Under the pieces are notes generated by a model. The model was given only the letters and a program-made list of their open reading frames with translations. It ran no database searches and was not told the origin of the DNA. The position numbers and the translations under genes are program-made. Shown one piece after another: positions 45,009 through 56,958 of a DNA stretch of 64,000 nucleotides. This DNA is from Actinomadura fibrosa. Lineage in GTDB: Bacteria; Actinomycetota; Actinomycetes; Streptosporangiales; Streptosporangiaceae. The stretch spans positions 1 to 64,000 of the forward strand of contig NZ_CAACUY010000024.1 in assembly GCF_900659615.1 (NCBI RefSeq), read 5' to 3'. The first letter of the stretch is position 1; each line of letters begins with the position of its first letter.

Positions 45009-46001
45009 TCAGCGCAGCGTGTAGCGGAGGGGGTCCGCCGTGCCGGCGCGGCGGGCCACGCCGCGGTTCTCCAGGACGCGCAGGTGCGCGGCGGCCTCGC
45101 CCGCGGCCATGCGGCGGGCCTGGAGCGGCATCTCCTCCCAGGGGTGCCGCCAGGTGAGGCCCGCGGTCAGCTCCCACAGCGTGACCGGGCGCGAGGACAG
45201 CAGGGCCGTCATCTCCGCCAGCCGCTCCTCGTGGTGGTCGATGATCTCGCGGACGCGGCCCGTCAGGCCGGTGAACCGGTACTGGTGGGCGGGCAGGACC
45301 TCGTCCGCGTCCATGCCGGAGATCTTGCCCAGCGAGCCGAGGAAGTCGCCGAGCGGGTCCACGGCCGGCAGGTCGTAGGGGTACAGGCCGATGTGCGGCG
45401 TGATCCGCGGCAGCACGTGGTCGCCGGTGAAGATCCGGTCGCCCTCCTCCAGGTGGAGGCAGATGTGGCCGGGGGAGTGGCCGGGCGTCCAGACGACGCG
45501 GAGCCTGCGGCCCGGCAGGTCCACGAGGTCGCCGTCGGCCAGCTCCCGGTCGGGCGCGGCGGGCGGGTCGACCCGCTCGCGCGCGCCGGGCGCCCGCAGC
45601 TCCGCCTCGTCCGCGCCGGCGCGGCGGAGGGCGGCGGTCTCGATCGCGCCGTGCGTGCCCTCCGCCACCACCGAGCGGAACATCCGGACGATCTCGGCGT
45701 CCGCGTGGTGCATCCCGATCCACGCGCCGGACGCCTCGCGGACCCGTCCCGCCAGGCCAGCGTGGTCGGGGTGGAAGTGGGTGACCACCACGCCGTGCAC
45801 GTCGGCGACGTCCAGTCCGAAACCGGCCAGGCCGTCGCGGAGCGCGGCCCAGGCGTCCTCGTGCTCCCAGCCCGCGTCGATCAGGACGGGGCCGCGCGGG
45901 CTCTCCAGGGCGTACACCAGCGTGTACGCGAGCGGGTTGCCCGGGATCGGGACCGGAACGCTCCACAGGCCATCGCCGAGATCCTCGGGTTCGGGCTGCA
46001 C
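45009..46001 (-). CDS. MBL-fold metallo-hydrolase with C-terminal winged helix
   Basis: A 330-residue metallo-beta-lactamase-fold hydrolase. The metal motif is VVVTHFHPDHAGLAG (HxHxDH), with later ligands in TPGHSPGHIC, IFTGDHVLP and LPAHQYRF. The last ~70 residues (ALLSSRPVTLWELTAGLTW, AEAAAHLRVLENRG) look like a winged helix common in LACTB2-like proteins. Members hydrolyse thioesters or phosphoesters. Its place beside the thiolase and P450 genes suggests acyl-CoA thioester hydrolysis, but no substrate is shown. It lies 60 bp after the thiolase on the same strand. Confidence 0.8.
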   Translation of the reverse strand: MQPEPEDLGDGLWSVPVPIPGNPLAYTLVYALESPRGPVLIDAGWEHEDAWAALRDGLAGFGLDVADVHGVVVTHFHPDHAGLAGRVREASGAWIGMHHADAEIVRMFRSVVAEGTHGAIETAALRRAGADEAELRAPGARERVDPPAAPDRELADGDLVDLPGRRLRVVWTPGHSPGHICLHLEEGDRIFTGDHVLPRITPHIGLYPYDLPAVDPLGDFLGSLGKISGMDADEVLPAHQYRFTGLTGRVREIIDHHEERLAEMTALLSSRPVTLWELTAGLTWRHPWEEMPLQARRMAAGEAAAHLRVLENRGVARRAGTADPLRYTLR

Positions 46002-46061
46002 GGGACCGCCTTTCGCGCCTGACGGCAGTTCGCGGGTGTCGGCTCGGGGACCTCCCCGAGG

Positions 46062-47300
<1,239 letters not shown>

Positions 47301-48935: not shown

Positions 48936-50024
48936 ATGCCGTCAGACGCCGACGAACCCGTGTTCGACGAAGAGTTCATCAGGGGCGCCGCGTTCACCGA
49001 GCCGTCCGCGCAGGAGCGGTCGCGCCCGCCGGGACGGCTGCGCCGGATGCGGGACCGCCGCGCCCTGCGCCGTTCCGGTCCGAGCGGCCGAGCCGGTCGC
49101 CGGGGCCTCGGCGGTCGCGGTCCGCTGGGCCGCCGGCGGCGGCGCGAGCGCCGGGAGCCGACCCACCGCAGGGCCGTCCTCCAGGTGATCGCCGGAGTGG
49201 CCGTGCTGCTGATGATCTCCACGGGGCTGTGGTGGTGGAACCGGCCCGCGCCGCGCGACGAAGCCGACGGATCGGTCATCATCGAGCAGGGCGTTCCGGA
49301 CGGCGGGAACCCGGGCGGCGCCGCCCCGGGAGCGCACGGCGATCCGTTCGCGGGCTCCCCGGCGGCGTCCTACGCGGACGGCGAGGCGGGCATCCAGATG
49401 CCCGATCCGAAGGCGGCGAACGGCCTCTCGGAGGCGGACCTCGCGCTCGCGTACGTGCGCGTCCGCAAGCTGATCGTCGCCGCGAACCTGGACCCCGCCA
49501 CCGTCTACGAGCGCAAGCCCGACGCGTTCCGGAGGCTGCTCGACCCCGCGCAGCGCCGGACCTTCGACCGCGACCTCGACGAGAAGGGCGAGCACAACAG
49601 CCGGACCTGGCTGACGAGCTTCGCCGCGGGCACCGCCGAGCGGGCCGTCCCGACGGTCAAGGTGCACGGGACCGTCACCGCGGCCAAGGCCCGCGACCAG
49701 GGCAGGCCCGGCGTGAAGGTGACCGCCGACCACCTGTTCGTCTACGCGGTCCAGCGGCCGGGCCGTCCGGAGACGGCGATGCGCGAGGTCGTGCGCCGCG
49801 CCATCGAGGTGTTCGTCTACCGCGAGGGCGGCGAGGTGAAGCTGTGGCTCACCCGCACGGACAGCTCCTCCGCGCCGTCCGCGTGCGACATGGGCGACGG
49901 CTTCGTCCACCCGCGGTACCGGGACGACCGGGGCGGCGCGCCGGGCGGCGAGTCGCACGACCCGTACGACCAGTCGAAGCCGATCCAGGAGGACCCCGAG
50001 TGCGGGCAGGTCACGCGCGTCTGA
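48936..50024 (+). CDS. Single-pass membrane protein of unknown function
   Basis: A 362-residue protein I do not recognise. An Arg-rich cytoplasmic N-terminus (GRLRRMRDRRALRRSG and later RRRRRERREPTHRR, residues about 30-78) precedes one membrane helix (VIAGVAVLLMISTGLWWW, about 82-100). The exterior domain of about 250 residues contains LSEADLALAYVRVRKLIVAA, LDPAQRRTFDRDLDEKGEHN and a C-terminal Cys pair (SACDMGDG, DPECGQV) that may form a disulfide. A KstR-like box lies 97 bp upstream, so coregulation with steroid genes is possible. ATG 48936 follows GGAGAGTGCCGAG. Confidence 0.6.
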   Translation: MPSDADEPVFDEEFIRGAAFTEPSAQERSRPPGRLRRMRDRRALRRSGPSGRAGRRGLGGRGPLGRRRRRERREPTHRRAVLQVIAGVAVLLMISTGLWWWNRPAPRDEADGSVIIEQGVPDGGNPGGAAPGAHGDPFAGSPAASYADGEAGIQMPDPKAANGLSEADLALAYVRVRKLIVAANLDPATVYERKPDAFRRLLDPAQRRTFDRDLDEKGEHNSRTWLTSFAAGTAERAVPTVKVHGTVTAAKARDQGRPGVKVTADHLFVYAVQRPGRPETAMREVVRRAIEVFVYREGGEVKLWLTRTDSSSAPSACDMGDGFVHPRYRDDRGGAPGGESHDPYDQSKPIQEDPECGQVTRV

Positions 50025-50044: not shown

Positions 50045-51301
50045 TCAGGCGGGATCGAGCACCACCCGCAGCGCGGCGTAGGCCGGGACGAGGACGCGGC
50101 GGGCGGGCCGCCGGGAGACGATCCGGTACGGGCGGCCGGACGCGTGGAGCGTCCGCAGCATCCGCTCGACCTGGGTCCGGGCGACGGCCGCGCCGAGGCA
50201 CAGGTGGCGGCCCCCGCCGAACCAGAGCTGCCGCGTCTCCGGCACGTACGCGCGGCGGACGTCGAACGGCCCGGCGCCGTTGGTGGCGAGGTAGGTGAGC
50301 AGGAGGACCCGCTCGCCGGCGCGGAGCGTCCGGCCGCCGACGGTGGCGTCCCGCGCGACGTGCCGTCCGATCACGGCCGCCGGGGTGGCGACGCGGAGGC
50401 CCTCGCGGACGGCGTTCCCGATGAGCGACGGATCGGCGAGCAGCGCGTCCTGCTGGCCGGTGTCGTGCAGCAGCGCGGCCGTGCGGACGGTCCCGGACGC
50501 GCCCGTCTCGGTGCCCGCGATCACGAGCAGGGTCGCGAGGCCGCGCGCGAGCGGCAGGCCGAGGCCCATCTCCCGGCAGCGGCCGAGCAGGGTCCCCGGC
50601 CCGCCCTCCGCGTAGCCGCGCGGGACGCCCGCGGTGATCTCGTCCACGATCGCGCGGGCCTCGGCGACGGTCTCCGGCGCCAGCTCGGTGGACGCGGTCG
50701 TGCCCATCGCCAGCCCGGCGAGCCGCTCCCCGGCGGCGAAGACGTCCCGGTAGGCGCCGTCCGGCCGGTCGGCGGGCAGCCCGAGCAGGTCGGCGACCAT
50801 CCGTCCGGCGAGGACGCGGGAGGCGTCCGCGACGTCCACGCTCTCCCCGGCGGCGAGGCGCCGCGCCAGCCCGGCGTGGTGCCGGCCCTGGGACCGTTCC
50901 ACCAGCGTGCGGGCGGCGTCCTCGGTGAACAGGTCGCGGGCGCGGGTGCGGATCTCCGCATGCCGCGCGCCCCCGAAGAACTGCGCCATCTCGTCGCCGA
51001 AGAGCTGTGTCCACAAATGGCCGACGCCGCCCTCCCCGTTCATGCCGAAGGCGGCGTGGTCGTTGAGGACGCGGCGCGCCAGCACCGGGTCCGTCACGAC
51101 CCAGCCGAGACGCGGGACGCGCGTGATCGGCCCGGTGTGCCGGGCCGCCTGGAGCAGCGCGTAGAGCCCGCGGTTCCCGGCCCACAGCAGCCGGGCCTCA
51201 TGCCGCGCCGCGTCCGCCGTCGCAGTGGCCGTCTTCGCAGTGGCCGCCGCCGTCGCGTCCGTCTTCGCAGGGGCCGCCGCGCGGGCCGCTTCGCTGGTCA
51301 T
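50045..51301 (-). CDS. Cytochrome P450, divergent from the ketosynthase operon
   Basis: A 418-residue P450 unlike the steroid P450s to its left. An Ala/Thr-rich lead precedes RLLWAGNRGLYALLQAARHT. The I-helix is LLVIAGTETGASGTV, ExxR lies in VREGLRVATPAAV (EGLR), and the heme loop is FGGGRHLCLGAAVARTQ, all complete. It resembles the second P450 in the facing operon in layout (start of the fold, ATHN/TYLATNGAGPFDVRR-type C-terminal segment), suggesting a pair acting on one product. The start could also be a GTG at 51376. It is convergent with the membrane protein gene. Confidence 0.82.
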   Translation of the reverse strand: MTSEAARAAAPAKTDATAAATAKTATATADAARHEARLLWAGNRGLYALLQAARHTGPITRVPRLGWVVTDPVLARRVLNDHAAFGMNGEGGVGHLWTQLFGDEMAQFFGGARHAEIRTRARDLFTEDAARTLVERSQGRHHAGLARRLAAGESVDVADASRVLAGRMVADLLGLPADRPDGAYRDVFAAGERLAGLAMGTTASTELAPETVAEARAIVDEITAGVPRGYAEGGPGTLLGRCREMGLGLPLARGLATLLVIAGTETGASGTVRTAALLHDTGQQDALLADPSLIGNAVREGLRVATPAAVIGRHVARDATVGGRTLRAGERVLLLTYLATNGAGPFDVRRAYVPETRQLWFGGGRHLCLGAAVARTQVERMLRTLHASGRPYRIVSRRPARRVLVPAYAALRVVLDPA

Positions 51302-51358
51302 CCGGCGATTGTGCCCGGGAGAAGACTTCGCACGGTAGGGCGAAGCACCCGAATAGGT

Positions 51359-51376
51359 GTGAGTGGTAGTACTCAC
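51359..51376. promoter_or_regulatory. Inverted repeat GTGAGT-N6-ACTCAC between divergent cluster genes
   Basis: Perfect 6-bp arms in the 261-bp gap between the divergent P450 and the ketosynthase gene. The position suits a shared operator. If the P450 starts at the GTG at 51376, the repeat would overlap its start codon. Confidence 0.4.
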
Positions 51377-51562
51377 GGCCTAACGGGTTACAACGCCCAG
51401 GAGTTGTTCCGTAGGGTTCCCCTGTCCGGGGACGGCCGCTCGCGGGGAGGCTTGATCCGCACGGCGCGGCCGGGCACGGCGGGCACGGGGACCGCCTGCC
51501 GCGCGCCGCGCCGCTCACAGGACGCCGTCCACGCAGGACGAGGAACCGGGGGACCGAAACCC

Positions 51563-52576
51563 ATGAGAGCCCGCATCACCGCCGTCGCGGCGCACCTGCC
51601 CGAGCGGACGGTCGCCAGCGCCGAGGTCGAGGCCCACGTCGCCGCCGCGAGCGCCACCGCGACCGGCGGCTACCGGCCGCACCCGACGATCATCGAGCGG
51701 ATGACGGGCATCCGCTCCCGGCACGTCATGGACGACGGCGAGCAGGCGTCCGACCTGGCCGTCGCCGCGGCCCGCCGCGCCCTCGCCCGGCGCGGGGCGG
51801 AACCGGCCGCCCTCGACCTGCTGATCTTCGGGTCGGCGTCGCAGGACCTCGTGGAGCCCGCCACCGCGCACATCGTCGCCGCCAAGCTCGGCGCGACGTG
51901 CCCGGTCTTCGACGTGAAGAACGCCTGCAACAGTTTCCTGAACGGCCTCCAGATCGCGGACGCGCTGATCCGCACCGGGCAGCACGAGCGCGTCCTCGTA
52001 TGCACCGGCGAGAGCCCGTCCCGCGCGATCCGCTGGAAGGTGCGCGACCGCGCCCAGTTCGCGGACGCGTTCGCCGGCTACACGCTGTCGGACGGCGGCG
52101 CCGCGGCGCTCGTCGAGGCCGCCCCCGACGGCGGGATCTTCTACCGCGACTTCGCGGCCGTCTCCAGCGCCTGGCGCGTCGGGACGCTGCCGGGCGGCGG
52201 ATCCATGCACCCCCGCGACCCCGAGCACACCTACTTCAGCGGCGACGGCCGCCGCCTCAAGGACGCATTCCTCGCCGGCGGCACCGAGATCTTCGACACG
52301 GCGCTCACGAAGACGGGCCTGACCTGGGACGACTTCGCCGTCGTCGCCGTCCACCAGGTGACCGTCCCGTACCTGGAGGTGCTGCGGGCCACGCTCGGCA
52401 TCCCCGCGGACCGGCTCGTCGTCACGCTGCCCGACCACGGCAACGTCGCCTCCGCGAGCCTGCCGCTCCAGCTCGCCACGGCGCTGCGGGAGGGCCGCTG
52501 CCGCGCGGGCGACCGGGTCGCGCTCGTCGGCCTCGCGGGCGGCATCAGCCTCGGCGTCGTCTTCGCCGAGCTGTGA
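51563..52576 (+). CDS. 3-oxoacyl-ACP synthase III / OleA-like condensing enzyme
   Basis: A 337-residue KAS III-fold enzyme. The nucleophile is the Cys in FDVKNACNSFLNGLQIAD (about 119), the His lies in VVAVHQVTVPYLE, and the Asn in LPDHGNVASASLPLQLATAL, so the triad is intact. RMTGIRSRH is a usual KAS III start motif. It could condense an acyl-CoA with malonyl-ACP, or two acyl-CoAs as OleA does. The adjoining OleC-like and OleD-like genes favour the OleA-type reaction (inference). ATG 51563 has only a GGGGGA site. It leads a five-gene operon with four tight junctions. Confidence 0.82.
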   Translation: MRARITAVAAHLPERTVASAEVEAHVAAASATATGGYRPHPTIIERMTGIRSRHVMDDGEQASDLAVAAARRALARRGAEPAALDLLIFGSASQDLVEPATAHIVAAKLGATCPVFDVKNACNSFLNGLQIADALIRTGQHERVLVCTGESPSRAIRWKVRDRAQFADAFAGYTLSDGGAAALVEAAPDGGIFYRDFAAVSSAWRVGTLPGGGSMHPRDPEHTYFSGDGRRLKDAFLAGGTEIFDTALTKTGLTWDDFAVVAVHQVTVPYLEVLRATLGIPADRLVVTLPDHGNVASASLPLQLATALREGRCRAGDRVALVGLAGGISLGVVFAEL

Positions 52577-52590
52577 GGGGAGCCGAGGGC

Positions 52591-53346
52591 ATGCGCCTGT
52601 GGGTGGTCGTCCCCGCCTACGACGAGGAGCGCTCGATCGGCGCGACGCTGCGGCGGCTCGCCGAGCAGACCGACACCGCGTTCACGCTCGTCGTCGTCGA
52701 CAACGGCAGCGCCGACGCGACCGTCAAGATCGTCCGGGAGTTCGCGGAGGAGCGGCGCCCCGGGCCGGACGTGCGGATCGTCCACGAGCCCGAGAAGGGC
52801 ACGGGCGCCGCCGCCGACACCGGCTTCCGGCACGCCATCGCCGCCGGCGCCACCCACATCGCCCGCACCGACGCCGACTGCCTGCCGCACCGCGACTGGG
52901 TCGCCGCCGTGAAGCGCGCCTTCGGCGACGGCCTCGCCATGGTCAGCGGTCCGCTCCGCCCCCGCACGGACGAGTTCCCGCTGAAGTTCTGGGAGCGGCG
53001 GCTGCTGCCCGCCGTCGTGGAGACCGCCGCGCTGTTCGGGCGGTTCCGGCCCGGCAACCAGGACCCGTTCTACCTCGGCCCGTACGTCATGATGCCCGGC
53101 TGCAACGTCGCGATCACCGCGGACCTGTACGAGCGGGCGGGCGGCTTCCCGCGCACCCGCATCGAGGACGTCCACGAGGACCGCGCGCTCGTCAACCGCG
53201 TCCGCTACCTGACCGCCGCCTACGGCCTCCGCAAGGACGTGGTCGTGTACGGGTCGGTCCGGCGCCTCCGCGCGTTCGGCCTGGTCAGGACCCTCGGCTG
53301 GTACGCCGACCACCGCTACCGCCCCGAGGTCGTGGACATCCGATGA
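52591..53346 (+). CDS. GT2 family glycosyltransferase
   Basis: A 251-residue GT-A enzyme: MRLWVVVPAYDEERSIGATL and VVVDNGSADAT at the start, the metal-binding DAD motif in IARTDADCLPHRDW, and IEDVHEDRALVNRV, where ED may act as the catalytic base motif. It lacks the membrane helices of processive GT2 enzymes, so it should be soluble or peripheral. ATG 52591 has GAGGGGAG upstream. Its stop overlaps the P450 start (ATGA), tying it to the cluster: the product may be a glycosylated lipid. Confidence 0.85.
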   Translation: MRLWVVVPAYDEERSIGATLRRLAEQTDTAFTLVVVDNGSADATVKIVREFAEERRPGPDVRIVHEPEKGTGAAADTGFRHAIAAGATHIARTDADCLPHRDWVAAVKRAFGDGLAMVSGPLRPRTDEFPLKFWERRLLPAVVETAALFGRFRPGNQDPFYLGPYVMMPGCNVAITADLYERAGGFPRTRIEDVHEDRALVNRVRYLTAAYGLRKDVVVYGSVRRLRAFGLVRTLGWYADHRYRPEVVDIR

Positions 53347-54515
53347 CGCCGGGCCACTGGGAGCGGCGCCTCTACCTGACCGCGCACCCGTTCGCGTACC
53401 CGCTGCTGCGCGGCGTCGCCCGCCTCGGACCGGTCGTGCGCGTGCCCGGCGTCGGCGTGATCGTGAACGACGCGTCCGCGGCCCGCGAGGTCCTCATGGA
53501 CGGGACGGCCTTCCGCAAGGACGGCCCCGGTTCGCCGGGCGAGCTGTGGACGCCGGTGCTGGGACCGTCCGTCCTGCTGAACATGGAGGGCGACGCGCAC
53601 CGCGCCCTCCGCCGCCGCCTCACCGACCTCTTCACCCCGGCCTACGCGCGGGATCTGTGCGAGCGGGTGCTGTCCGCCCCGCTGGAGCGGCTCGCCGGCC
53701 GCCTCGCGCGCGGCGCGGACGTCGACCTCGTGGACGCGTCCCGGATGATGGCGGGCGCCGTGATCAGCGAGGTCATCGGCCTGGAGACGCGAACGGAGGA
53801 CGCGTTCCGGGACCTGTTCGAGCAGGGCGAGCGGATCGTGTCGATGGTCTCCCTGCGGACGCGGCGGCTGTCCCCGGCCCAGGTGGCGCGGGCCCGCGCC
53901 GTCCTCGACCCGCTCGGCGATACCGCCGCGAAGGCGTACGCGGCGGGCGACCCGTCCACCGTCATGGGACGGATGCGGGCGCTCGGCCTGTCCGAGGACG
54001 AGGCGCGCGGCGCCGCCGGGGCCTTCTTCCTCACCGGCACCGAGACGGTCGCGACGCTGCTGCCCCGGCTGGTCGCGCTGCTCGCCGACTCCGGCTCGCT
54101 CGACCGCGTCGCCGCCGACCCGGACGGCCTGCTCGACCCCGCCGTGGACGAGGCCATGCGCGCCACGACGCCGACCCCCGTCATGCTGCGCAGCGTGCAC
54201 CGCCCCACCACGGTCGGCGGGGTCGCGGTCCGGCCCGGCGACCGCGTGCTGATCGCCACGCACAACTGCTGCCGCGCGCACGGGCCGTTCGACCTCGACC
54301 GCCCGCACCCGCCCGAACTGCGGCGGCTCTGGTTCGGCGCGGGCCCGCACTTCTGCATCGGCTACCCCCTCGCGATGGCGGAGATCCGGCTCATCGCCCG
54401 CACCCTCCTCGCCGCCGCCCCCCTCCGCATCACCCGCCGCACCGCGGCGCGCGGCGTCCTGATCCCGACCTACCGAACCCTGACCATCCGCACCGCACCG
54501 GAGGCGATGGCGTGA
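53343..54515 (+). CDS. Cytochrome P450 in the ketosynthase operon
   Basis: A 390-residue P450. The I-helix is AFFLTGTETVATLL, with TGTET in place of AGxET. ExxR lies in VDEAMRATTPTPV (EAMR) and the heme loop is FGAGPHFCIGYPLAMAE. It begins directly with YLTAHPFAYPLLRGVARLG, so the N-terminus is short. ATGA overlap with the GT2 gene and GTGA overlap with the ligase gene fix both ends. It may oxidise the chain or the condensed product; no ferredoxin lies in this cluster. Confidence 0.85.
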   Translation: MTPGHWERRLYLTAHPFAYPLLRGVARLGPVVRVPGVGVIVNDASAAREVLMDGTAFRKDGPGSPGELWTPVLGPSVLLNMEGDAHRALRRRLTDLFTPAYARDLCERVLSAPLERLAGRLARGADVDLVDASRMMAGAVISEVIGLETRTEDAFRDLFEQGERIVSMVSLRTRRLSPAQVARARAVLDPLGDTAAKAYAAGDPSTVMGRMRALGLSEDEARGAAGAFFLTGTETVATLLPRLVALLADSGSLDRVAADPDGLLDPAVDEAMRATTPTPVMLRSVHRPTTVGGVAVRPGDRVLIATHNCCRAHGPFDLDRPHPPELRRLWFGAGPHFCIGYPLAMAEIRLIARTLLAAAPLRITRRTAARGVLIPTYRTLTIRTAPEAMA

Positions 54516-56029
54516 CGCTCGTCCGGCAGATGCTCGACCAGGCGGCGCGCACGCCCGAGGCGGTCGCGCTCGTCGCGGGCGACGGCGCCGAGCTGACGTA
54601 TGGCGAGCTGCGGCGGCAGGTGCTCGCCGTCCGGCACGGCCTCCTCGACGCGGGCCTCGGCGCGGGCGACGGGGTGCTGTTCTCCGTCCGGCCGTCGCCG
54701 GAGTCGCTCGTCCTCGCCCTCGGAGTCGTGGCGGCGGGCGGCGTCGTCGTGTTCGCCGACCCGGGCGCCGGCCCGGAGATGTTCACCGCGCGGCTCAGGC
54801 TGGCGCGCCCGCGCTGGTCCGCCGCCGAGTCGATCCTGTACGCGGGCAGCCGCCTGCGGCCCGTCCGGGCGTACGCGCGGCGGCGCGGCCTGCTCCTCCC
54901 GAACCTCGCCGACCTGCGCGTTCCCGGCGGGGACCCGCTGCGGCACGTGCACGTCGGCCGGTGGCTGCCCGGCGTCCCGCGCGGCTCCCTCTCCTTCGCG
55001 GACCTGGCCCGCGGCCCCGCCCCCGAGCCCGAGCTCGGCGACGGCGACCCGGACGCGCCCGCCGCCGTGATCTTCACCTCGGGCACGACGGCGGACCCGC
55101 GCGCCGTCGTCCACACGCAGGGATCCCTCGCGGCCGCGCTCGGCCTGTTCCGCGCGCGGATGCCGCTCGGACCCGGCGACGTCGTCCACACCGACCAGCT
55201 GATGCTGGGCCTGCCGACGCTGATCTCGGGGGCCCGCTGGTCGATGCCGCCGCTGGCCTGCCCGCCCGCGGAGTTCGCGCGGCTGCTGCGCGAGCGCGGC
55301 GCCACCCACACCTTCTGCGTGCCCGTCCACCTCGCCGAGATCCTGGACGCCGTCCCGGAGCTGCCCGCGACCCTGCGGTACGTGCTGCTCGGCGCGGCGC
55401 CGGCACCCGCCGGGATCCTGCGCCGCGCGGTCGCCGCCGCCCCGTCCGCCGAGGTCCTGTCGGTGTACGCGATGACCGAGATCGTGCCGGTTGCCGTCGC
55501 GCGGGCCGCCGAGAAGCTGGCGCACACCGCGTCCGGCGCGGGCGGCGACCTGCTCGGCACGCCCCTGCCCGGCGTCACCGCCCGCGCCGCGGACGACGGG
55601 GAGCTCCTGCTGTCCGGCCCCAACCTGTGCTGCGGCTACCTCGGCGCCGACCCGCTCACGGAACTGCCGACCGGCGACCTCGTCCGCCTCGACGCCGGGC
55701 GCCTCGTCCTCGTCGGCCGCAAGAAGGACATGCTGATCCGCGGCAAGTTCAACCTCTACCCGGGCCTGTACGAACCGTCGATCACCGCGCTCCCCGGCGT
55801 GGACGACGCCGCGATCGTCGGCGTGCCCGACCCCGAGACGGGGGACGAGGAGGTCGTCCTCGCCGTCGTGGGCGCGGACGACCTGCCCGCACGCCTCCAC
55901 CGCACCCTGCCGGACGTCATCGACCACGACGCCCTCCCGGACCGCATCGTCGTCCTGCCGGAACTGCCCCGCTCCGGCCGCACCCGCAAACTGGACCGTG
56001 ACCTCCTCCGCGCGGAGGTCACGCGATGA
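54512..56029 (+). CDS. OleC-like AMP-dependent ligase (putative beta-lactone synthetase or acyl-CoA synthetase)
   Basis: A 505-residue ANL-superfamily enzyme. The P-loop is FTSGTTADPRAVVHTQGSLA (about 189-208), motif A5 reads VYAMTEIVPVAVARAAE, then TASGAGGDLLGTPLPGVTA. The C-terminal domain has GDLVRLDAGRLVLVGRKKDM and the catalytic Lys region RSGRTRKLDRDLL. YxxTExxPV with the following TxxGAG is the pattern of OleC beta-lactone synthetases. A plain fatty acyl-CoA ligase remains possible. The GTG overlaps the P450 stop and its own stop overlaps the reductase start (ATGA). Confidence 0.78.
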   Translation: MTLVRQMLDQAARTPEAVALVAGDGAELTYGELRRQVLAVRHGLLDAGLGAGDGVLFSVRPSPESLVLALGVVAAGGVVVFADPGAGPEMFTARLRLARPRWSAAESILYAGSRLRPVRAYARRRGLLLPNLADLRVPGGDPLRHVHVGRWLPGVPRGSLSFADLARGPAPEPELGDGDPDAPAAVIFTSGTTADPRAVVHTQGSLAAALGLFRARMPLGPGDVVHTDQLMLGLPTLISGARWSMPPLACPPAEFARLLRERGATHTFCVPVHLAEILDAVPELPATLRYVLLGAAPAPAGILRRAVAAAPSAEVLSVYAMTEIVPVAVARAAEKLAHTASGAGGDLLGTPLPGVTARAADDGELLLSGPNLCCGYLGADPLTELPTGDLVRLDAGRLVLVGRKKDMLIRGKFNLYPGLYEPSITALPGVDDAAIVGVPDPETGDEEVVLAVVGADDLPARLHRTLPDVIDHDALPDRIVVLPELPRSGRTRKLDRDLLRAEVTR

Positions 56030-56958
56030 GGATCGCGGTCACCGGCGCATCGGGCTTCGTCGGCGGCGCCGTGTGCCGCGCGCTGGCAGCGCAGGGCATC
56101 GCGACATTCGCGACAGGCCGCCGCCCCACCGTCCCCCCGGGCCACCTGGGCGGCGCCGAGTACCGGGCCTGGGACCTCACCGAAGGCCCGATCCCGGACG
56201 CGCCGCCCGTGGACGCCGCCGTCCACTGCGCGGGCAGCGTCACCGACTGGGGACCGGCGGCCACCCTGTTCACCGCGAACCTGATCGGCACCCGCAACGC
56301 CCTCGCGTCCTTCCCGGACGCCCGGTTCGTGCACCTCAGCACGGCGAGCGTGTACGACCCGTCCCGGCCGAGCGTCATGGTCACCGAGGACGAGGCGCCC
56401 GTCCGCCGCTACCTCAACGCCTACGGCGCGTCGAAGGCCGCCGCCGAGCGCGCCGTCCTCGCCGCCCGCCGCGAGACGATCATCCTGCGCCCGCACGCCG
56501 TCTACGGGCCCGGCGACACCACGCTGCTGCCGCGCGTCCTGTCCGCCGTCCGCGGCCCGCTGCTCCCCGCGGTCGGGACGGGCCGCCAACGCGTCAGCCT
56601 CACCTCGGTCGCGAACCTCGTCCAGGCGTGCCTGCTCGCCGCCACCGGACCGGTCGGCACGGGCGTCTTCAACGTCGCGGACGCCTTCCCGGTGACCATC
56701 GACGACGCGTTCCGCGCGATCCTCCGCGAGCGCGGCGTCCGGGCCCGTCCCGTCTACGCGCCGGAACGCCTCGCCCGTCCGCTCGCCGCCGTGGCCGAGG
56801 GCGCGTTCCTGCTGGCCCGCCGCCCGGAACCGCCCCGCGTGACCCGCTACGCGATCAGCCATCTGGCGGTCGAGCGGACGCTCGACATCACCGCCGCGCG
56901 CGAGGTCCTCGGCTACCGCCCGGCCGCGACCGGCTTCACCGGAGCCGCCGCCTGGTGA
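56026..56958 (+). CDS. OleD-like NAD(P)-dependent reductase (3-beta-HSD/epimerase family)
   Basis: A 310-residue extended SDR. The Rossmann loop is MRIAVTGASGFVGGAVCRAL, followed by VDAAVHCAGSVTDWGPAATL and FTANLIGTRNALASF. The catalytic Ser/Thr lies in FVHLSTASVYDPS and YxxxK in NAYGASKAAAERAV, then ILRPHAVYGPGDTT. This layout matches OleD, which reduces the 2-alkyl-3-keto acid made by OleA before OleC closes the beta-lactone. It is the last gene of the operon. Confidence 0.82.
   Translation: MRIAVTGASGFVGGAVCRALAAQGIATFATGRRPTVPPGHLGGAEYRAWDLTEGPIPDAPPVDAAVHCAGSVTDWGPAATLFTANLIGTRNALASFPDARFVHLSTASVYDPSRPSVMVTEDEAPVRRYLNAYGASKAAAERAVLAARRETIILRPHAVYGPGDTTLLPRVLSAVRGPLLPAVGTGRQRVSLTSVANLVQACLLAATGPVGTGVFNVADAFPVTIDDAFRAILRERGVRARPVYAPERLARPLAAVAEGAFLLARRPEPPRVTRYAISHLAVERTLDITAAREVLGYRPAATGFTGAAAW

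What the first reader, a model, noticed from the sequence alone, without database searches (positions are those of the whole stretch)
50045..56958. Compact OleA/OleC/OleD-like cluster with a GT2 and two P450s
Five genes run rightward with four tight junctions (14-bp gap, then ATGA, GTGA, ATGA overlaps): KAS III/OleA-like synthase with intact Cys-His-Asn, GT2, P450, OleC-like ANL ligase and OleD-like reductase. A second P450 diverges from a shared promoter. OleA, OleD and OleC make beta-lactones from two acyl chains, and OleB then decarboxylates them to olefins. No alpha/beta hydrolase (OleB) is present, so a beta-lactone or a further oxidised, glycosylated long-chain product could be the end point. 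The family assignments are from motifs; the pathway and product are inference. The combination with a glycosyltransferase and paired P450s is one I do not recognise.
Basis: partly seen in the sequence, partly recalled or inferred. Interest (0 to 1): 0.78.

Follow-up and report, generated by a model that had tools for sequence, protein, structure and literature searches.

The report
OleACD-type lipid cluster with glycosyltransferase, P450s
A tightly packed gene cluster found in many actinomycetes encodes enzymes predicted to join two fatty acids, reduce and activate the product, and likely oxidise it and add a sugar; a like gene set was described in 2020, and the lipid it would make has yet to be isolated.

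Summary
Observation confirmed: five same-strand genes (KAS III-like synthase, GT2, P450, ANL ligase, SDR reductase; 51563-56958) with a 14-bp gap and three 4-bp overlaps, plus a divergent P450 (50045-51301). All 22 same-genus loci fetched and 56 of 80 named actinomycete loci keep the five genes in order. The synthase has the OleA glutamate (E98) that E. coli FabH lacks, in 34 of 34 sequences aligned, window included. The ligase lies in a clade next to OleC and shares its odd A10 motif (21 of 21; OleC 13 of 13; other ligases 0 of 37), but keeps an A8 N-x-Y-P loop that OleC lacks and fails the curated OleC model. No OleB was found in the own genome or in 145 relatives' loci. Prior art: Smith et al. 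2020 (PMC7064751) described OleA-glycosyltransferase-OleC-P450-OleD in Actinoplanes atraurantiacus and proposed a hydroxylated, glycosylated beta-lactone. Added here: its breadth; GT2-ligase fusions and split clusters in Thermomonospora-type genomes; a Nocardia version where the same GT2+ligase pair stands beside a lipstatin-type synthase pair. GT2+ligase looks like the constant core. Beta-lactone or another activated glycolipid: open.

The parts
50045..51301 (-). P450b, divergent cytochrome P450 with intact heme-cysteine loop; optional member
   Evidence: PF00067; motifs FGGGRHLCLG, EGLR, AGTET; in 48 of 80 named loci
51302..51562 (.). 261-bp intergenic region between the divergent P450b and the synthase; shared promoter not shown
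   Evidence: sequence; no sigma-70-like site in 51200-51700
51563..52576 (+). OleA-like KAS III synthase (E98, C122, H264, N294)
   Evidence: PF08545/PF08541; OleA Glu conserved
52591..53346 (+). GT2 glycosyltransferase, DAD and ED motifs, GT-A-like fold in the model
   Evidence: PF00535; alignment A1; model pLDDT 83.6 and PDB fold matches
53343..54515 (+). P450a, cytochrome P450 with intact heme-cysteine loop
   Evidence: PF00067; FGAGPHFCIG, EAMR
54512..56029 (+). ANL (AMP-forming) ligase of a clade next to OleC; OleC-type A10 motif, N-x-Y-P A8 loop
   Evidence: PF00501/PF13193; trees; motif counts
56026..56958 (+). OleD-like SDR reductase
   Evidence: best NCBIfam match NF042422 OleD, 126.1 bits, below its 580-bit cut-off; YGASK, GASGFVG

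Best explanation
This is a conserved actinomycete cluster of an OleA-type synthase, GT2, P450, OleC-sister ligase and OleD-like reductase without OleB, which likely makes a long-chain 2-alkyl-3-hydroxy acid that would be closed to a beta-lactone and is predicted to be hydroxylated and glycosylated. Inferred steps: the synthase condenses two acyl-CoAs without decarboxylation, with E98 as base; the reductase reduces the 3-keto group; the ligase adenylates the carboxylate and lets the 3-hydroxyl displace AMP; P450a (and P450b where present) hydroxylates a chain, and GT2 adds a sugar to that hydroxyl. With no OleB the lactone would not be decarboxylated to an olefin. Shown: gene content, order, intact motifs, the ligase's place next to OleC in the trees made, no OleB-grade match, and the coupling of GT2 to the ligase by adjacency and fusion. 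Inferred: every reaction, the order of steps, the sugar, the chain lengths and the product.
For: OleA glutamate plus Cys-His-Asn in 34 of 34 GT2-type (window included) and 19 of 19 sister-type synthases aligned; E. coli FabH has Phe there. 14 of 19 sister-type loci also encode OleB, OleC and OleD. Window-type ligases are one clade (SH-aLRT 100) joined to OleC (99) apart from 37 other ligases (86); A10 motif P-x3-R-x(2,3)-K-x2-R in 21 of 21 and 13 of 13, 0 of 37 others; window-type with FadD rejected, AU p 0.029. OleD is the reductase's best model. No OleB match in 145 loci; own-genome best 55 bits (74 bits at 28% by BLASTP) against 225-320 bits for diverged OleBs of ole clusters. The same gene kinds were read the same way for Actinoplanes (PMC7064751).
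Against: The ligase keeps an A8 N-x-Y-P loop in 21 of 21 (12 of 37 other ligases, 0 of 13 OleC), so it may still use CoA or another acceptor. It fails the OleC model. Window-type with NRPS-like ligases is not rejected (AU p 0.165). The purified Actinoplanes OleA gave no product with the acyl-CoAs tested, from limited protein (PMC7064751). The synthase clade joined FabH-like rows at 87 (unstarred), and without the long rows that join had support 0. In 12 of 16 named Nocardia loci no reductase was recognised. No product is known.
Confidence: 0.45

Rival explanations
1. The ligase no longer makes a beta-lactone: with GT2 it forms a unit that activates the 2-alkyl-3-hydroxy acid (or its glycoside) and passes the acyl group to a sugar hydroxyl, CoA or another acceptor, giving a mycolate-like glycolipid or a sugar lactone.
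For: GT2 and ligase are one open frame in 4 Thermomonospora-type loci and listed as two-domain proteins P0114, P0119, P0120; they are neighbours in 24 of the 25 Nocardia genomes (of 78 drawn) that have the ligase, where the synthases are of another type. A8 loop kept, OleC model failed. An LCP gene follows the cluster in 11 of 80 named loci.
Against: OleC-type A10 motif and place next to OleC; no further acyltransferase gene was seen in the five-gene set.
Confidence: 0.3
2. An ordinary OleABCD olefin pathway with OleB encoded elsewhere in the genome.
For: Sister-type synthases sit in complete ole clusters in 14 of 19 loci.
Against: No OleB-grade match in the own genome, a draft of 97.54% completeness; none in 145 relatives' loci.
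Confidence: 0.04
3. A FabH-type decarboxylative starter cluster with an acyl-CoA ligase, unrelated to Ole chemistry.
For: The synthase scores slightly higher on the general KAS III model PRK09352 (181.5 bits) than on PRK09258 (170.7), both under cut-off; the synthase clade joined FabH-like rows at 87, unresolved.
Against: OleA glutamate in 34 of 34; ligase next to OleC; no ACP or PKS among the nine proteins scanned.
Confidence: 0.1

Closest known systems
Actinoplanes atraurantiacus OleA-glycosyltransferase-OleC-P450-OleD cluster (Smith et al. 2020, PMC7064751)
   Same: Same five kinds of gene, no oleB; product proposed by its authors: hydroxylated, glycosylated beta-lactone
   Different: Listed there as GT-OleC-P450, here GT-P450-ligase; a second divergent P450 here; sequence orthology not tested (that genome was not reached)
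Nocardiolactone (nlt) and lipstatin (lst) OleACD-type clusters
   Same: OleA-, OleC- and OleD-type enzymes without OleB
   Different: Lipstatin uses a synthase pair LstA/LstB (PMC12141560 passages). Loci L303 and L304, which I take as lst/nlt-like from their gene content, hold OleC-clade ligases. The window has a single synthase with Cys and Glu in one chain
OleABCD long-chain olefin pathway
   Same: Synthase with OleA glutamate, OleC-sister ligase, OleD-like reductase
   Different: No OleB; GT2 and P450 added; ligase outside the OleC clade
GT2-type operon of Nocardia (L233 and relatives)
   Same: GT2 (61-66% identity) next to a ligase of the same clade (43-53%); divergent P450b in 12 of 16 named loci
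   Different: Lst-type synthase pair in 14 of 16 and lst/nlt-type reductase recognised in 4 of 16 named loci, no P450a recognised

Membership tests
OleA thiolase | Glu at XcOleA position 117 plus Cys-His-Asn | tested here: met
   E98, C122, H264, N294; 34 of 34 sequences, window included; E. coli FabH has Phe. Glu117 is from a title in the reference list of PMC7064751; that PDB 3fk5/3row are XcOleA and the spacing to Cys143 are recalled
OleA thiolase | Score over cut-off of PRK09258 (NF006720) | tested here: not met
   170.7 bits against 285; that this model covers OleA is recalled
OleA thiolase | Condenses two acyl-CoAs | not testable with these tools
   needs an enzyme assay
OleC beta-lactone synthetase | Score over cut-off of NF045786 | tested here: not met
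   75.9 bits against 900; actinomycete OleC loci also miss the cut-off, at 306-581 bits
OleC beta-lactone synthetase | Inside the OleC clade | tested here: not met
   separate clade beside OleC
OleC beta-lactone synthetase | OleC-type A10 motif, canonical GK lost | tested here: met
   P-x3-R-x(2,3)-K-x2-R 21 of 21; GK 0 of 21, 31 of 37 in other ligases. The full OleC form P-x-D-x-RHN-x-K is 12 of 13 in OleC, 0 of 21 here
OleD reductase | Score over cut-off of NF042422 | tested here: not met
   best of 12 models, 126.1 bits against 580
OleABCD olefin pathway | OleB in cluster or genome | tested here: not met
OleA-GT-OleC-P450-OleD cluster (Smith et al. 2020) | These five gene kinds together, no oleB | tested here: met
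   against the text read
OleA-GT-OleC-P450-OleD cluster (Smith et al. 2020) | Sequence orthology with the Actinoplanes genes | not tested
   that genome was not reached
P450-derived glycosyltransferase activator (EryCII type) | Over cut-off of TIGR04515, heme cysteine lost (the loss is recalled) | tested here: not met
   82.1 and 56.0 bits against 343; cysteine loop present in both

The most novel reading that the evidence does not exclude
A GT2-plus-ligase unit, fused in Thermomonospora and able to work behind two different OleA-type front ends, has replaced OleC: the ligase is an evolutionary intermediate between CoA ligases and beta-lactone synthetases, and together with GT2 it turns 2-alkyl-3-hydroxy acids into an unseen class of glycosylated lactone or acyl-sugar lipid that is widespread in actinomycetes.
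Probability: 0.25. Interest if true: 0.75.

Novelty: new member of a known kind. Interest (0 to 1): 0.5.

Why it matters
A compact pathway kept in Actinomadura, Streptosporangium, Catellatospora, Pseudonocardia, Nocardia, Streptomyces and others, for which my paper searches gave no characterised product, is a good target for a lipid or beta-lactone with a basic role. The ligase, with an OleC-like A10 and a CoA-ligase-like A8, makes the origin of beta-lactone synthetases testable by enzyme assay, and the fusion tells which two enzymes to assay together.

Tried and rejected
Rejected: an OleB elsewhere in the genome (calibrated). Rejected: EryCII-type helper role for the P450s. Considered and dropped: that the Nocardia GT2 operon is the nocardiolactone cluster. 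N. brasiliensis is not named among the best 120 of 1241 ligase hits (clustered at 90% identity, many unnamed, so suggestive only), and lst/nlt-like loci L303 and L304 carry OleC-clade ligases.

Led nowhere: NCBIfam and PDB matches of the GT2 (weak, many donors) give no donor or acceptor. Promoter scan: nothing. Eight paper searches: only PMC7064751 was seen to bear on this gene set. PMC7606675 is not held. The gene caller was too strict for some loci and is used for context only. Two generic A8 patterns missed E. coli FadD itself and were dropped for the count. A first ligase tree failed on misread strands and was redone, without L327 (stops in my frame). For one search I kept 16 of the 29 own-genome rows (L331, only 19% filled, among those dropped) and added 19 of 20 newly fetched (L361 gave no frame); these 35 are a part of the 111 matches. 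For one search I took 25 of 83 synthase rows out (long rows and near-copies). For one search I chose 33 GT2-type relatives out of the loci held.

Against the reading: GT2-type synthases are not one clade, since the OleB-linked type nests among them (2 changes); the joint clade met FabH-like rows at 87, support 0; 5 of 19 sister-type loci show no ole neighbours; one of 25 Nocardia genomes shows the ligase without GT2 (L276); 6 of 80 named loci lack a recognised synthase of either type (L192, L193, L194, L238, L239, L244) and L232 shows only the second subunit, of which L194 and L244 are explained by a split cluster; a reductase was recognised in 4 of 16 named Nocardia loci. The groups of the AU tests were named after the tree was seen.
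Full report
What is there. The five genes and the divergent P450 are as described, with the families confirmed by Pfam. Contigs of same-genus genomes match named Actinomadura and Spirillospora records in length, so the window is from Actinomadura or close kin.

Conservation. The synthase ortholog is in 22 of 23 same-genus relatives at 80-90% identity; the 23rd (G018) has only a partial 41% match at best. The 22 loci fetched carry all five genes in order, and 12 of the 22 the divergent P450b. At E 1e-45 the synthase matches 48 of 150 genomes of the family and 33 of 394 of the class; these counts include the OleB-linked sister type and the own genome. Nine more distant loci (L136, L137, L139-L144, L146) show GT2 next to the ligase with a P450 behind it, the order listed for Actinoplanes.

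Synthase. Against solved structures the window synthase aligns to 3fk5/3row (XcOleA, as recalled) with the OleA glutamate in place and FDV-NAC-F-NG in common, where the two FabH-type chains shown have Phe. Among 83 KAS III sequences, Glu, Cys, His and Asn are all present in 34 of 34 GT2-type (33 chosen relatives and the window) and 19 of 19 sister-type sequences; five FabH-like ones have F, S, T, I or G at the Glu place. In trees the window type and the OleB-linked type form one clade (99), but its place relative to FabH and classic OleA is unresolved (joined to FabH-like rows at 87; support 0; AU p 0.384 for joining classic OleA). In 14 of 19 sister-type loci OleB, OleC and OleD lie alongside; in L148 a reducing type I PKS precedes them.

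Ligase. Of 71 ligases, the 21 window-type form one clade (100) and the 13 OleC one (99), and the two join (99) apart from 35 of the 111 own-genome matches and E. coli FadD and EntE; a first tree gave 86 for the joint branch. FadD as partner is rejected (p 0.029), NRPS-like ligases are not (p 0.165). Both groups lost the canonical GK of motif A10 (0 of 21 and 0 of 13; present in 31 of 37 others) and share an Arg four residues after its Pro, with the Lys three or four further on. Yet the window type keeps N-x-Y-P in A8 (21 of 21; 12 of 37 others; 0 of 13 OleC). That this loop serves the thioester half-reaction in the superfamily is recalled, not tested.

GT2. Alignment A1 of 17 GT2s has 52 invariant columns, D94 and D96 of the DAD motif and D197 among them. 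The model (pLDDT 83.6) matches many GT-A enzymes (the GT-A label is recalled). Donor and acceptor are unknown.

Fusion and splitting. In four Thermomonospora-type loci (L113-L116) GT2 and ligase are one open frame next to the synthase; T. echinospora and T. umbrina proteins P0114 and P0119 are listed with both domains. The named T. echinospora and A. craniellae second loci show P450b, GT2, P450a and reductase (L244, L194). Both halves of the split cluster are kept, which argues that the genes work together.

Nocardia. 25 of 78 Nocardia genomes drawn have the ligase, with GT2 beside it in 24 of those 25. In L233 the operon reads P450b (divergent), two synthase genes, reductase, GT2, ligase. Over 16 named Nocardia loci the first and second synthase are recognised in 14, P450b in 12, the reductase in 4 and P450a in none. 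The first synthase keeps Glu-Cys-His-Asn and the second only the Glu, 8 of 8 each, like LstB, whose E60 is needed for activity (PMC12141560 passages). Synthase 1 and the reductase of L233 are nearest to L303, an lst/nlt-like locus (59% and 52%), while the ligase is of the window's clade. So the front-end genes differ and GT2 plus ligase stay.

OleB. The best own-genome match to an OleB of an ole cluster is 55 bits over half its length, 74 bits at 28% by BLASTP; OleBs of diverged ole clusters score 225-320 bits. None of 145 fetched loci has a match at 1e-5; some of these are the same genome twice and a few hold only part of the cluster.

Literature. PMC7064751 (sections 10 and 11 and passages read) reports the gene set in Actinoplanes atraurantiacus, activity of its OleA in the p-nitrophenyl ester screen, no product from the little purified protein with the acyl-CoAs tested, and a predicted hydroxylated, glycosylated beta-lactone. 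PMC7413640 (passages) reports 36 nocardiolactone clusters in Nocardia. The eight paper searches named under Tried and rejected showed no characterised product of this gene set.

Verdict. A real, conserved, uncharacterised OleACD-type cluster of a kind described before. Most likely a hydroxylated, glycosylated beta-lactone or close derivative (0.45); the ligase's mosaic motifs and its coupling to GT2 leave a non-beta-lactone glycolipid a serious rival (0.3).

Noticed in passing
L148:59-11658 and 13 more sister-type loci: OleA (41-49% identical to the window's synthase), OleB, OleC and OleD together; in L148 preceded by a 2300-aa reducing type I PKS, a protein family seen in 12 loci: a possible PKS-primed olefin pathway.
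   Followed up: partly
L197-L203, L205, L206, L208, L212: An LCP (LytR-CpsA-Psr) gene follows the reductase in Streptosporangium, Planomonospora and kin, 11 of 80 named loci.
   Followed up: partly
L304:4925-13133: Lipstatin-like set: synthase pair, OleC, reductase and a further long adenylating open frame, in a genome (G342) that also has the GT2-type cluster (L141).
   Followed up: partly
L146:1240-6872: Two GT2 genes flank the ligase in one cluster.
   Followed up: no
window 48936-50024: SCO2583-family-like protein with the SCO2583/SCO2584 N-terminal domain next to the cluster.
   Followed up: no
window 45009-47222: Thiolase and metallo-beta-lactamase-fold genes, also near the cluster in several relatives.
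   Followed up: no
own genome G000:C21: NRPS-rich contig, open frames up to 5707 codons with repeated adenylation domains.
   Followed up: no
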